From contig NZ_CABDWS010000035.1 in assembly GCF_901447495.1 (NCBI RefSeq), forward strand, positions 1 through 32,195: DNA of 32,195 nucleotides, in the 5' to 3' direction. The position numbers were made by a program, and so were the translations under genes. This DNA is from Haloimpatiens lingqiaonensis. GTDB taxonomy: Bacteria > Bacillota > Clostridia > Clostridiales > Clostridiaceae. Below the pieces are notes generated by a model. The model saw nothing but the letters and a program-made list of their open reading frames with translations, was not told the origin of the DNA and did no database searches. Below are positions 1,209 through 20,517 of the stretch, one piece after another. The first letter of the stretch is position 1; every line of letters starts with the position of its first letter.

Positions 1209-1220
1209 TATTAGTGAGAG

Positions 1221-1283
1221 GTAAAAAGTAAGAGGTGAAAAGTAAAAAGTAATAAGTAAAAAGTAAGAGGTAAAAAGTAAGAG
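1221..1283. repeat. 63-bp minisatellite unit, left of the IS110 element
   Basis: AT-rich unit built from imperfect GTAAAAAGTAAGAG and GTGAAAAGTAAAAAGTAATA subunits. It is identical base for base to 3090-3152 on the other side of the IS; counting two more bases on the left the match is 65 bp. It begins 12 bp after the ATPase stop codon. The irregular interior makes chance identity unlikely, so the two copies were probably adjacent tandem units before the IS inserted. Confidence 0.85.
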
Positions 1284-1400
1284 ACCAGCTAGTAAAAGTC
1301 AATAAGTTTTTATAAAAATTTTTATTAATAAAAATAGGCATAACAAAAAGTCCATTGAAAAACACGAACAATGGAAAATGGCTCCTAATTGTTTTAGCCG

Positions 1401-2696
1401 TTAGGCTGCGCGGGTTGATTTATTGTTTAGATACATTTTTGAATGTATTTTGGGGTCACGTAATTCATACTCCTTTTGGTTTTTAAGAACAGAGAATATG
1501 TAGTTAATTAGCTTATGCATTATTGCAACTAAGCCTACTTTTTTCTTTTTACCTTTCATATTCTCATTATAGAAATTTAGTAGAACTTTATTTATAGGTT
1601 CACCTTTTCTATTCTTACGTATGGATGCTAACGCGACAGCGTATAAGGCTCTACGGCCTATTCTGGTACCTCGTTTAGACATGGCATTTCTGTCACTAGT
1701 AAACTTACCAGATTGGCTAACAGAGGGATCTAAACCAAAATAAGCAACTAAGTGTTTAGGCTTAACAAAGCCTTTAATATTGCCTATTTCACTCATTATT
1801 GTAATGGCAGTTAGTGCTCCAACACCTGGTATTGAGTAAAGTAATTGTACATTTTTCTTAAATTCATCAGATACTTCATTACTACGCATTAATAGATGAA
1901 TTTCTGTTAATAGATTTTCAATTTGGATTTCTAGTGATTCTATTACTGCGATAGTATTAATTATTTTTACAAACAGACTTGGTGATTTAAGGCCAATGTA
2001 AACAGCGTCCTCTGCAGCAGCATATAGCTTTTTATAAGTTTTTTCACTGTGTGCTAGCCCTCTTTTGGAACTGGTTGAAATGAGGTTAATAAGTTCATTT
2101 CTATCAGCATTTAAAACTGCTTCAGGGCTAGAATACTTTTTTAATATAGCTATTGATGTTTTTCCAGTAATGTCCGAAAAGACAGTGCTATAACTAGGAA
2201 ATATAACTCTTAAATCAGTAGAAAGCTTTTTCTTAAATGCAGATTTACTATCAGTAAATTTATAGTAATCTCTACAAAGAGACTTTAAAGTGTAGATTTC
2301 AACATCAAAATCAGAAGAATATTTAACATTTTGAAATTTACCTATAGTAGCAATGGTTAATGCATCTTTTTTATCATTTTTCACTTTTCTTATTCCACTA
2401 TTTTTGTTACAATTAGTAATGAGTGGATTAAGGATACATACTTCAAATGTATCTTTAAGAAAGTGGAAAAGAGTAAGATGGTATACACCAGTAGATTCCA
2501 TGAAAATACCAGTTTTCATGTTAAACTCTTCTTCCGCTTTTTTTATTTGATCTACTAGGTAATCAAAACCATTTCTGCTATGCATAATCTTAAAAGGCTT
2601 TCTATAAATTTCACCGTTAGGTGCTAGTATGGCAACTACTGAGAAGTCTGCTGATACATCAATTCCAACTGTTGGTCTATAAAAAAATTTACTCAT
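1401..2696 (-). CDS. IS110-family transposase (DEDD/serine recombinase)
   Basis: 431-aa recombinase that moves its element under direction of a bridge RNA (established for IS110 relatives). The N-terminal RuvC-like domain shows the DEDD residues D13 (VGIDVS), E67 (MESTGVYH), D108 and D111 (NDKKDA). The middle is helical. The C-terminal Transposase_20 domain has SIPGVGALTA followed by LDPSVSQSGK (about 322-331), which should contain the catalytic serine, and then SKRGTRIGRRALY. The ATG at 2696 has AAAGGAG (complement of 2706-2712) about 9 bases upstream. The reading frame is full length and undamaged, so the element may still be active. Confidence 0.95.
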   Translation of the reverse strand: MSKFFYRPTVGIDVSADFSVVAILAPNGEIYRKPFKIMHSRNGFDYLVDQIKKAEEEFNMKTGIFMESTGVYHLTLFHFLKDTFEVCILNPLITNCNKNSGIRKVKNDKKDALTIATIGKFQNVKYSSDFDVEIYTLKSLCRDYYKFTDSKSAFKKKLSTDLRVIFPSYSTVFSDITGKTSIAILKKYSSPEAVLNADRNELINLISTSSKRGLAHSEKTYKKLYAAAEDAVYIGLKSPSLFVKIINTIAVIESLEIQIENLLTEIHLLMRSNEVSDEFKKNVQLLYSIPGVGALTAITIMSEIGNIKGFVKPKHLVAYFGLDPSVSQSGKFTSDRNAMSKRGTRIGRRALYAVALASIRKNRKGEPINKVLLNFYNENMKGKKKKVGLVAIMHKLINYIFSVLKNQKEYELRDPKIHSKMYLNNKSTRAA

Positions 2697-2744
2697 ATAT
2701 ATTATCTCCTTTGTTTTTGAGATAGAATAGATATTCCATTTCTA

Positions 2745-2970
2745 TCAGTAATTTTGTAACCTTGTTTGTGACACAGGTAATTCCCGAAGGGAAACCTAAC
2801 CAGCTAAACACAGAATTCTCACTGATGGAATGATACTCTCTTCTACGGGTAATAATGACTCGCTAGAGTCACTTCCCAGGTAAAAACCATCTATCTTCTA
2901 TTCAAGAGATATTATACATCAATATTAACTAATTTGGTTTCCTTTTAAGGGAAAATAGAAAACTAAGTTA
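2745..2970 (-). ncRNA. Predicted bridge RNA of the IS110 element
   Basis: Read on the minus strand, this noncoding stretch has a 5' hairpin (TTTCC/GGAAA, 2938-2942/2950-2954) and two guide loops. In the target loop, 2878-2886 matches the right flank at 3088-3096 (AGGTAAAAA), and 2838-2842 is complementary in sense to AAGAG at 1279-1283. A perfect hairpin TGACTC/GAGTCA (2856-2871) separates these two segments. In the donor loop, 2799-2806 matches the element end at 1284-1291 (ACCAGCTA), and 2761-2765 is inverted relative to ACAAG at 3085-3089. TTCCC/GGGAA (2781-2793) separates these two. Order and orientation (LTG, RTG, LDG, RDG) follow the IS621 rules. The exact RNA ends are not known. Confidence 0.75.
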
Positions 2971-3089
2971 GAGTAGAAACATGCACCCTATCGGGTAAAA
3001 AAATTACGAATAATAGAAAAAAATCAGTTATAATGTTCGTAGGTAATATAGATAGTTTTCTATTGAATGTTATGACTACATTATACAAG

Positions 3090-3166
3090 GTAAAAAGTAA
3101 GAGGTGAAAAGTAAAAAGTAATAAGTAAAAAGTAAGAGGTAAAAAGTAAGAGGTAAAAAGTAATAG
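3090..3166. repeat. 63-bp minisatellite unit plus partial unit, right of the IS110 element
   Basis: 3090-3152 is identical to 1221-1283. A further partial subunit, GTAAAAAGTAATAG, follows to 3166, and a degenerate piece appears again near 3345-3356. The motif GTAAGAGGTAAAAAG, which is the IS110 target, occurs again inside each copy, so unoccupied target sites remain. Confidence 0.8.
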
Positions 3167-3537: not shown

Positions 3538-4236
3538 ATGCTGATTCATGAGGTGGTTTTAAGGATTGCTCTTGCGGTTATAGTAGGTGGATTAATTGGG
3601 TATGAAAGAGAATTCAAGAATAGACCAGCAGGCTTTAGAACTCACATTTTAGTTTGTGTAGGTGCTGCGGTGATTTCTATGATTCAATTATATTCAGTGG
3701 AAGAAACTACTAGATTAATATTAGCACATCCACAGTTACAATCTGCTTTGAAGGCTGATATTGGAAGGCTTGGGGCACAAGTTATAAGTGGCATAGGTTT
3801 TTTAGGTGCAGGTACTATAATTCATGAAAAAGGGTCTGTTAAAGGGCTTACTACTGCGGCAAGTCTTTGGGTAGTAGCATGTATTGGATTAGCAGTGGGC
3901 CTTGGATACTACACTTTAACTTTGCTATCAACAGCTGCTGTTTTTATGGTACTAGCTTCACTTAAAAGATTTGAGGCTAGATTTATGGAGAAAGGGAATT
4001 TAGTTAAAATTGAACTTCAATATATTGATAAAAAGCAATTAACATATATTATTGAAGGATATTTTGAAGATAAAAATATAAAAGTACAAAACATTGAATT
4101 TTCTTTAGAAGATGATGATAATATATATAAAAGCAGTCTTTATACTGTATTGGTACCTAGATATATTAAAATAAGCAAAATAATTCAAGAATTATCGGTT
4201 TATGAAGGGATAGAAAAAGTTAATTTAGTTGAATAA
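3538..4236 (+). CDS. MgtC/SapB family membrane protein
   Basis: 232-aa membrane protein of the MgtC/SapB family, associated with Mg2+ limitation, acid or virulence adaptation. About four N-terminal membrane segments (residues 1-140) carry the family hallmarks GGLIGYERE, RPAGFRTHILVCVGAA, GIGFLGAGTI and KGLTTAASLWVVA. A soluble, ACT-like C-terminal domain (about 150-232) follows. The start is fixed because an in-frame TAA lies at 3529-3531; the ribosome site (CTAAGG) is weak and close. A strong hairpin at 4361-4395 ends the unit, so the gene looks monocistronic. Family assignment is firm; the physiological role is not. Confidence 0.9.
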   Translation: MLIHEVVLRIALAVIVGGLIGYEREFKNRPAGFRTHILVCVGAAVISMIQLYSVEETTRLILAHPQLQSALKADIGRLGAQVISGIGFLGAGTIIHEKGSVKGLTTAASLWVVACIGLAVGLGYYTLTLLSTAAVFMVLASLKRFEARFMEKGNLVKIELQYIDKKQLTYIIEGYFEDKNIKVQNIEFSLEDDDNIYKSSLYTVLVPRYIKISKIIQELSVYEGIEKVNLVE

Positions 4237-19160: not shown

Positions 19161-20288
19161 ATGATAAAAGCATTAAATATACGGCTATATCCAACACAAG
19201 AGCAAATAATTTTAATGCATAAGCATATAGGCTGTATGAGATTTGTTTATAATTGGGCGTTAGCCAGACAAATAGATAGCTATGAACTTAATAGTAAAAA
19301 ACTATCAGTTACAGATTTAGGTAAACAATTAACTGTTTTAAAGAATACCGCAGGTTATGAGTGGTTATATGAAGTATCTAATGCAACACTTAAAGAGAGT
19401 ATTAGAGATTTAGATAAAGCATATACTAATTTCTTTAATGGAAGTGGCTTTCCTAAATTTAAAAGCAAGAAAAAATCAGAACCTAGATTTTATAGCAGAT
19501 ATGAAAGAATTTATTTTCAAGATAACTTTGTTAATCTTGAAAAGATAGGTAAAGTTAAATACAAATCAGATTATGATATAGATTTAACTGCTGTAACAAA
19601 GTTTAAAAATCCCAGAGTACATTTTAATAGTAGAGTATGGGTACTTTCAGTAGGTATTGAAGATACTATTAAAACTGTTAAATTAAATGATTTTAGCTTA
19701 GGAATTGATTTAGGAATATCTAAATTAGCGATAACAAATATAGATAAATTAGACACAAAGAATGTTAATAAAACAAACAAAGTTAAAAAACTAAGTAAAA
19801 AGTTAAAAAGGCTTCAAAGACAATGTTCAAGAAAATATATTATGAATAGGAAAGGAGAGAGTTACCAAAAAACCAAGAACATTGCAAAACTTGAAAAGAA
19901 GATTAAGAAACTTCATAGTAAACTTAAAAATATTAGATTAAACCATATACACCAAACTACTTCTAAAATGGTGAAAGCCAAACCATATAGAATAGTTATG
20001 GAGGATTTAAAAGTATCTAATATGATGAAGAATAAGCACTTATCAAGGGCAATAGCAGAGCAAGGATTTAATATTTTTATCAATCAGATGAAATATAAAT
20101 GTGAAAAGTATGGTATTAAATTTGTGCAAGTACCTACATTTTATCCTTCAAGTAAAACATGCAGTTATTGTGGCAATATCAAGAAAGACTTAAAGCTTTC
20201 AGATAGAGTTTATAAATGCAAATGTGGATTTACTTGTGATAGAGATAAAAATGCTTCATACAACCTTGCAGACTATGGTTTAGTATAA
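19161..20288 (+). CDS. tnpB: TnpB-type RNA-guided endonuclease of an IS200/IS605- or IS607-like element
   Basis: 375-aa nuclease, full length for the family. The N-terminal helix-turn-helix-like segment IKALNIRLYPTQEQIILMHK is followed by RuvC residues D183 (LGIDLGIS), E281 (VMEDLKV) and D360/D362 (CDRDKNASYN). The zinc finger is CSYC...CKC (about 331-353). Known homologues cut DNA guided by an omega RNA from the element's right end and promote retention of the element. No TnpA (Y1 or serine recombinase) gene is adjacent, so this is a solo copy that cannot transpose without help. The ATG follows GAGGTG at 19148-19153. Confidence 0.92.
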   Translation: MIKALNIRLYPTQEQIILMHKHIGCMRFVYNWALARQIDSYELNSKKLSVTDLGKQLTVLKNTAGYEWLYEVSNATLKESIRDLDKAYTNFFNGSGFPKFKSKKKSEPRFYSRYERIYFQDNFVNLEKIGKVKYKSDYDIDLTAVTKFKNPRVHFNSRVWVLSVGIEDTIKTVKLNDFSLGIDLGISKLAITNIDKLDTKNVNKTNKVKKLSKKLKRLQRQCSRKYIMNRKGESYQKTKNIAKLEKKIKKLHSKLKNIRLNHIHQTTSKMVKAKPYRIVMEDLKVSNMMKNKHLSRAIAEQGFNIFINQMKYKCEKYGIKFVQVPTFYPSSKTCSYCGNIKKDLKLSDRVYKCKCGFTCDRDKNASYNLADYGLV

Positions 20289-20310: not shown

Positions 20311-20412
20311 TGGGTAATCGTTACAACCCAATATACTTGTAAAGTATATCAAAGCCTATAGAGTGTTACACAAACGAAAGTAGCTGCAATCTAACCTCTT
20401 TGCAGGAGGTTG
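20311..20412 (+). ncRNA. Candidate omega RNA scaffold / right end of the tnpB element
   Basis: Three hairpins follow tnpB: TGGGT/ACCCA (20311-20330), a perfect ATATACTT/AAGTATAT (20331-20349), and AACCTC/GAGGTT (20393-20411). TnpB elements encode an omega RNA overlapping the tnpB 3' end, with the guide lying just past the right end, so the bases after about 20412 would be the guide. The boundary is inferred from the last hairpin. The rest of 20289-20517 shows nothing else. Confidence 0.45.
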
Positions 20413-20517
20413 TAAAATGGGCAAAATCGAACATTATGAAGTAGGAAAGAAACAAAACTATATATTTATATAATCTTTTTATAAAGTTTTATAAGGTTTT
20501 GGTAACGGTATTCAATA

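What the first reader, a model, noticed from the sequence alone, without database searches (positions are those of the whole stretch)
2745..3087. Complete guide set of an IS110 bridge RNA read from sequence, explaining its insertion site
All four guide segments predicted by the IS621 model are present in the right order and orientation: LTG (2878-2886) and RTG (2838-2842) match the repeat DNA flanking the element, and LDG (2799-2806) and RDG (2761-2765) match the element's own ends. Each pair surrounds a perfect small hairpin, and the core is CT at both junctions. On the transposase strand the inferred target is TTTTTAC-CT-CTTAC. This is a natural programmable recombinase with a readable target.
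Basis: partly seen in the sequence, partly recalled or inferred. Interest (0 to 1): 0.75.

Follow-up and report, generated by a model that had tools for sequence, protein, structure and literature searches.

The report
RNA-guided jumping gene in repeat DNA
This is a known kind of bacterial jumping gene (IS110 family) that carries its own guide RNA; its relatives show that most of them are aimed at the ribosome-binding sites of genes, while this copy is aimed at a repeat scattered through its host genome.

Summary
Confirmed. The four guide segments lie where stated; 0 of 50,000 shuffles reproduces them in order. The element (1284-3089, minus strand) encodes a 431-aa IS110 recombinase and a leader RNA whose two-loop fold covaries in relatives: 92.5% of cells paired (38.8-48.9% when slid), 20 of 36 pairs with double-sided change. 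Over 69 insertion sites in 26 genomes the left target guide matches its own flank at 5.3 of 7 positions (background 1.96; 0 of 10,000 permutations). The right target guide also tracks its flank, more weakly. The right donor guide predicts the element's left end in 69 of 69 parsed copies, 32 distinct RNAs; one unparsed copy breaks this. New context: the commonest guide in relatives is CCTCCT, the complement of the Shine-Dalgarno sequence, and 50 of 69 insertions sit just before a start codon. The window copy, and a second copy whose guide differs by one base that its own flank shares, are aimed at a dispersed heptad repeat. IS900 (start-signal targeting) and seekRNA elements (natural re-programming) are precedents, so this is a well-resolved new member. 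No transcript or activity was shown.

The parts
1284..3089 (-). Whole IS110 element, 1806 bp counting one CT core (cores at 3089-3088 and 1283-1282)
   Evidence: Conserved end sequences; both ends recognised in 61 copies of 18 genomes. Copies within G150 and within G137 share sequence up to these ends and differ beyond
1401..2696 (-). Recombinase, 431 aa; D13, E67, D108, D111 and S329 align with the DEDD residues and S241 of IS621 (DEDD residue numbers of IS621 recalled; S241 seen)
   Evidence: PF01548 4.3e-26, PF02371 2.2e-23; phmmer to IS621 8wt6 1.8e-14 and ISCro4 9t56 4e-14, positions counted by hand on that alignment
2719..2910 (-). Bridge RNA as modelled (192 nt; true transcript ends not known)
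   Evidence: Model R1 and covariation
2897..2903 (-). 5' arm of outer stem GAATAGA
   Evidence: pairs with 2725-2731, 97.8% of cells paired (helix 1)
2725..2731 (-). 3' arm of outer stem TCTATTC
   Evidence: helix 1
2878..2886 (-). Left target guide TTTTTACCT (7 non-core + CT)
   Evidence: identical to the flank
2847..2877 (-). Hairpin between the two target guides
   Evidence: helices 3 and 4; all 5 pairs of helix 4 have double-sided changes, 81.3% of its cells paired
2838..2842 (-). Right target guide AAGAG (core + 3)
   Evidence: pairs with CTCTT of the right target; tracks the flank over 61 sites
2799..2806 (-). Left donor guide TAGCTGGT
   Evidence: identical to the element's right end 1291-1284; nearly invariant in relatives
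2776..2796 (-). Hairpin between the two donor guides
   Evidence: helix 7, 95.6% of cells paired
2761..2765 (-). Right donor guide ACAAG
   Evidence: pairs with CTTGT of the left end; dinucleotide covaries with the end in 69 of 69 parsed copies
1297..1302 (-). -35 box TTGACT of the circle-junction promoter, in the right end
   Evidence: TTGAC[TA]-17-TAT[AG]AT across RE-CT-LE in 61 of 61 copies with both ends
3080..3085 (-). -10 box TATAAT of the circle-junction promoter, in the left end
1219..1283 (+). Left flank, heptad repeat array (right-target side on the transposase strand)
   Evidence: 65 bp identical to 3088-3152; heptads
3088..3152 (+). Right flank, heptad repeat array (left-target side on the transposase strand)

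Best explanation
An IS110-family insertion sequence with a bridge RNA of the IS621 type. The element excises as a circle; joining its ends builds a promoter (TTGACT-17-TATAAT) that transcribes the leader RNA. The RNA binds the recombinase; its first loop pairs with the target (LTG with the left bottom strand, RTG with the right top strand), its second loop with the element's own joined ends, and the recombinase exchanges strands at CT. The commonest guide in this clade is the complement of the Shine-Dalgarno sequence, so insertions land just upstream of start codons and leave AGGAGG intact. In this genome the target loop matches a dispersed heptad repeat (GTAARAA/GTAAGAG). Shown here: anatomy, conserved fold, guide-target and guide-donor covariation, SD placement, junction promoter sequence. 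Inferred from published IS621 work: transcription, RNA binding, circle formation and strand exchange.
For: Recombinase family and catalytic residues. Fold: 92.5% of 929 cells paired, slid controls 38.8-48.9%; 20 of 36 pairs with double-sided change, slid 5-9. LTG: 69 sites, 26 genomes, 5.30 of 7 matches, other offsets of the same flanks 1.96; at least 5 matches in 77% against 2.5%; 23 distinct guides re-dealt 10,000 times, none as high. Of 12 rows whose guide is not CCTC, 8 match their own four core-proximal bases completely; re-dealing 11 guides, 0 of 5,000 as high. RTG: 61 sites, first 3 bases, 0 of 10,000. RDG dinucleotide equals the left end in 69 of 69 parsed copies (TG 51, CG 17, CA 1), which are 32 distinct RNAs in 23 genomes; two further copies were predicted to begin CT-AG and do. 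Plasmid copies from Thermoanaerobacterium and Peptoclostridium, not used to build the model: 6 of 9 scorable, RDG right in all 6 with two further end types (AG, GG), LTG 4 to 7 of 7. Same-genome one-base guide and flank difference. SD: 50 of 69 sites followed by a start codon with an open frame, 45 of 57 for CCTC guides, against 400 of 4,000 random positions and 31 of 86 AGGAGG words. Junction promoter sequence 61 of 61. Tree: the window groups with two Hathewaya copies that have the CCTC guide, 97/95.
Against: No transcript or activity data. No Rfam family matches the RNA. The single-sequence fold is only modestly better than shuffles (z -1.79; 7 of 200 as good) and its minimum-energy structure is not the conserved one. 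RTG agreement in the window is 3 non-core bases; in the plasmid copies it is good in some and absent in L207. The base after the LDG does not match the core C. 8 of 69 sites match the LTG at 3 or fewer of 7 positions (L188 1; L179 and L171 2; L091, L083, L132, L138, L108 3), some because the crossover lies a few bases off, and L135, not among the 69, matches at 1 of 7. The IS621 handshake pairing of the target loop is absent in 48 of 59 scored copies and half present in the window. The right-end fragment L118 of the same genome has RT CCATG, poor for this RTG; whether it belongs to the same copy as L119 is not known. 12 of 57 CCTC-guide sites have no start codon. L177 breaks the donor rule at one base and L181 has a damaged RDG. 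No empty site was sought or found, and a 65-bp block is identical on both sides of the element.
Confidence: 0.93

Rival explanations
1. The recombinase itself reads the target by protein-DNA contacts; the leader is an ordinary regulatory RNA and its matches to flanks are coincidence or sequence picked up from old flanks.
For: All scored copies share the CT core, and one guide class (CCTC) dominates, so part of the match could reflect one ancestral preference.
Against: Close recombinases have different targets that follow the loop: window TTTTTAC and Hathewaya CCTC at 92% protein identity; the same-genome one-base change; 8 of 12 non-CCTC guides match their own four core-proximal bases fully. 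One identical RNA sits at 9 different sites in G150, so the match is not copied from the local flank.
Confidence: 0.04
2. Same mechanism, but the window copy is no longer active.
For: One complete copy and two end fragments on other contigs in this genome, while some relatives have at least 9 to 12 copies (G150, G137).
Against: Open 431-aa frame, catalytic residues, guides and both promoter boxes intact.
Confidence: 0.3
3. The repeat guide arose after a CCTC-guided element landed in an SD-like site (AGAGG) of the repeat, the guide then converging by recombination with flanking sequence.
For: The repeat contains AGAGG; the two copies in this genome are mosaics, with leaders 57-80% identical upstream of the RNA but 95-100% over it.
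Against: The RTG also differs from relatives' RTGs, and the two half-sites lie on opposite sides of the element, so one conversion event would not give both.
Confidence: 0.15

Closest known systems
IS621 and ISCro4 bridge recombinases (Durrant 2024 PMC11208160 and Hiraizumi 2024 PMC11208158, passages read; ISCro4 seen only as PDB hit 9t56)
   Same: DEDD plus serine recombinase, leader RNA with two loops each holding left and right guides around a hairpin, CT core, promoter rebuilt in the circle, dispersed repeat as target (REP for IS621)
   Different: 431 aa against a 328-residue solved chain; 179 nt of left end before the modelled RNA; outer stem enclosing both loops; LDG not followed by the core C; target-loop handshake pairing mostly absent; different target
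IS900 of Mycobacterium avium paratuberculosis (PMC8141618, passages read; Doran 1997 seen only as a title in its reference list)
   Same: IS110 family; insertion motif CATGNNNNNNTCTCCTT, i.e. reverse complement of an SD-like word and a start codon, the same order as in the CCTC-guide copies here
   Different: IS900's guide RNA was not examined here; the window copy itself targets a repeat, not an SD
IS110- and IS1111-type seekRNA elements (Siddiquee 2024 PMC11187229, passages read)
   Same: Non-coding region upstream of the gene in the IS110 type yields a guide RNA; natural re-programming among relatives reported
   Different: IS1111 type has the non-coding region downstream and subterminal inverted repeats; such repeats were not sought here

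Membership tests
IS110 family | DEDD_Tnp_IS110 and Transposase_20 domains | tested here: met
   both above the curated cut-off
IS110 family | DEDD and serine catalytic residues | tested here: met
   alignment to 8wt6, counted by hand; IS621 DEDD residue numbers recalled, S241 seen
IS110 family | Long non-coding region upstream of the gene (IS110 type, not IS1111) | tested here: met
   391 bp upstream, 117 bp downstream within the element, from coordinates
IS110 family | No target-site duplication beyond the core | tested here: inconclusive
   relatives' flanks share CT only by eye; the window has 65 bp identical on both sides inside a tandem array; no empty site
Bridge RNA | Two internal loops conserved by covariation | tested here: met
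Bridge RNA | LTG and RTG match and covary with target | tested here: met
   exceptions
Bridge RNA | LDG and RDG match and covary with the donor ends | tested here: met
   RDG 69 of 69 parsed copies over three end types, one unparsed exception; LDG matches but is nearly invariant, so it gives no covariation
Bridge RNA | Promoter rebuilt at the RE-LE junction | tested here: met
   sequence only, 61 of 61
Bridge RNA | Handshake guides pair after strand exchange | tested here: inconclusive
   donor-loop first position can pair in 59 of 59 (3 by G-T), nearly invariant; target-loop fails in 48 of 59
Bridge RNA | RNA expressed and bound by the recombinase | not testable with these tools
   needs RNA sequencing and binding assays

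The most novel reading that the evidence does not exclude
A clostridial clade of IS110 elements whose bridge RNA is in effect an anti-Shine-Dalgarno guide: it aims insertion at the ribosome-binding sites of many genes while rebuilding the AGGAGG at the junction, and lineages are re-aimed by changing both target guides, here to a host heptad repeat, elsewhere apparently to other repeats. Target loops may also act in trans: two identical copies that lack exactly the target loop sit at two different SD sites.
Probability: 0.7. Interest if true: 0.62.

Novelty: new member of a known kind. Interest (0 to 1): 0.5.

Why it matters
It gives a natural series of guide changes with matched targets in one clade (SD, SD variants, a heptad repeat and others), including a one-base change between two copies in one genome, which is a ready test bed for bridge-RNA rules. 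It also suggests a guide-RNA explanation for why some IS110 elements, such as IS900, sit at start signals.

Tried and rejected
Rfam found no family for the RNA. Single-sequence folding was uninformative. RNAalifold's pairing of guide CCU with GGG was set aside for a GGG-CCC closure in the counting structure; model R1 still carries the RNAalifold structure. The counting structure was derived from the same alignment, so the slid control favours it on cells paired, less on double-sided changes. First-pass patterns for guides missed or misread several loops and were replaced. Of 87 model matches in loci chosen because they had hits, 86 were parsed (L098 dropped as a repeat of L195); 15 gave no LTG or no recognised left end (L096, L195, L184, L178, L134, L194, L139, L135, L190, L189, L191, L192, L106, L107, L193); 71 gave both; two repeated sites were dropped (L185, L126), leaving 69. 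On the right-target side two were dropped (L085, L121), leaving 61. L118 was left out of the model search because it lacks the leader, and L197 because it repeats L106. L132's guide was parsed one base off by an inserted A and was still counted. Copies are related and many are identical, so permutations were done over distinct guides; that does not remove shared ancestry. The tree does not show clustering of guide class (7 changes, shuffled mean 7.4), so SD as the ancestral target is a majority inference, not shown. Searches for a published account of clostridial SD-directed IS110 or of this heptad repeat (listings, with passages read from PMC11208160, PMC11208158, PMC11187229, PMC8141618 and PMC3196728) showed none; that library lacks most subscription papers and all bioRxiv.

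Full report
What was checked. Dinucleotide-preserving shuffles of this stretch gave the four words in order in 0 of 50,000. The two long words (LTG, LDG) carry the weight; the two 5-letter words are common by chance.

The element. The window lies in genome G000 (184 contigs), which the tool does not name; relatives in the same family include genomes whose contigs match named Clostridium and Hathewaya records, so Clostridiaceae is an inference. The element runs 3089 to 1284. Its gene is a 431-aa recombinase with both IS110 Pfam domains that matches the IS621 and ISCro4 chains, with the DEDD residues and the serine aligned. It lies between an ABC transporter ATPase gene (96-1208) and an mgtC-family gene (3538-4236), inside an array of 7-base repeats.

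The RNA. Twenty-six leaders were aligned. A structure with an outer stem, a target loop with a hairpin and a donor loop with a hairpin has 92.5% of cells paired; sliding the 3' partners gives 38.8-48.9%; 20 of 36 pairs change on both sides (5-9 when slid). A covariance model found matches in 36 of 225 genomes of the order. No Rfam family fits.

Guides against flanks. Element ends were recognised by conserved end sequences, not by the target guides. In 69 insertion sites of 26 genomes the LTG matches the flank at 0.43, 0.68, 0.67, 0.90, 0.88, 0.81 and 0.93 of sites from position -7 to -1, mean 5.30 of 7; the same guides against other offsets of the same flanks give 1.96. Re-dealing the 23 distinct guides never reached the observed mean in 10,000 tries (null 3.29, sd 0.23; the statistic weights each guide once, observed 5.08). 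By number of matches the 69 sites are: 7 of 7, 9; 6, 31; 5, 13; 4, 8; 3, 5; 2, 2; 1, 1. Among 12 rows with other than CCTC next to the core, 8 match their own four bases fully (window, L119, L175, L095, L177, L115, L114, L116), two match three of four (L137, L176), and two match CCTC better than their own guide (L132, whose guide was parsed one base off, and L138). For the RTG, 61 sites of 21 genomes match at 0.93, 0.64, 0.41, 0.46, 0.25 and 0.33 for the first six bases; permutations as high: 2 of 10,000 on two bases, 0 on three and on four, 4 on six.

Donor side. The dinucleotide after CT at the left end equals that predicted by the RDG in 69 of 69 parsed copies (TG, CG, CA); these are a different set from the 69 target sites, and amount to 32 distinct RNAs in 23 genomes. 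Two copies whose left ends had not been recognised were predicted to start CT-AG and do (L135, L190), although their LTGs match the flank at only 1 and 4 of 7. Copies that the pattern could not parse were read by eye: L176 fits, L177 differs at one base, L181 has a damaged RDG, L196 shows no RDG.

Out of sample. Nine plasmid copies from Thermoanaerobacterium and Peptoclostridium were all found by the model. Six could be scored: RDG right in all six, with end types AG and GG; LTG 7, 7, 5, 7, 7 and 4 of 7 (L201, L202, L206, L207, L208, L209); RTG five of five bases in L209, the first two in L201 and L202, the first only in L206 and L208, none in L207. In L203-L205 the left end was not recognised. 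L201 and L202 are alike, so these are fewer than six independent cases.

Same-genome test. A second left-end fragment (L119) has LTG TTCTTACCT where the window has TTTTTACCT, and its flank has TTCTTACCT. Upstream of the RNA the two leaders are 57-80% identical over columns 40-200, the window there resembling the C. carboxidivorans copy and L119 the Hathewaya copy, while over the RNA they are 95-100% identical.

What the clade aims at. The commonest guide is CCTC-CT. Read on the other strand, the flank is AGGAGG or close to it followed by a start codon with an open frame in 45 of 57 such sites, 50 of 69 overall; controls with the same test are 400 of 4,000 random positions, 31 of 86 AGGAGG words and 528 of 3,884 other AGG words, taken from loci around relatives, some of it element sequence. 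Because CT is kept at both ends, the AGGAGG beside the gene is rebuilt. The window and L119 flanks are not SD sites but a heptad repeat found 104 times (25 bases, up to 3 mismatches) in this genome, 29 in one congener, 0 in another, with 0 for the reversed control in each. The exact 12-base target occurs 32 times here, three of them in the window, reversed control 16. The protein tree places the window beside Hathewaya copies with the CCTC guide (97/95), inside a clade that is mostly CCTC; guide class itself is scattered on the tree, so the direction of change is likely but not proved.

Known background. Bridge RNA, CT core, junction promoter and repeat targeting are described for IS621 (PMC11208160, PMC11208158; passages). 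Start-signal-like targeting is described for IS900 (PMC8141618, passages; motif CATGNNNNNNTCTCCTT). Natural re-programming is described for relatives of seekRNA elements (PMC11187229, passages). I found no account of SD-guided clostridial IS110 or of this heptad repeat, which cover only the open library.

Limits. No expression or activity data; no empty site; the 65-bp identity of the two flanks is best read as a tandem array already present, but that was not tested.

Noticed in passing
L106 and L107 (genome G137): Two 1814-bp copies, identical to each other, lack exactly the 76-nt target loop (between 8-base TTAGATGT repeats) yet sit at two different SD-like sites with unrelated flanks (34-35% identity); six intact 1890-bp copies compared are identical to one another. 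Suggests movement in trans, though gene conversion or two separate deletions are possible.
   Followed up: partly
window 1219-1283 and 3088-3152: A 65-bp heptad-repeat block is identical on both sides and ends exactly at each junction; IS110 elements are not known to duplicate targets, so a tandem array that was already there is the likely cause.
   Followed up: no
window 20355-20447: RAGATH-18 RNA directly downstream of a TnpB-like gene 19161-20288 (PF07282, PF12323, PF01385), possibly its guide RNA.
   Followed up: partly
L119 against the window leader: Mosaic leaders: diverged upstream part, near-identical bridge RNA.
   Followed up: partly
L084, L085, L086: All three fetched copies from C. 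carboxidivorans and C. drakei sit beside one shared sequence (RT CAAATGCGACGTCC) with a matching RTG CTCA, perhaps a second repeat target.
   Followed up: no
L135 and L188: Copies in two genomes share the left flank TTATTACAGGAATA, which fits neither LTG, perhaps another shared target.
   Followed up: no
L115, L138: Guide CCAGCCCCT; flanks look, by eye only, like ends of other mobile elements; L138's flank fits CCTC better than its own guide.
   Followed up: no
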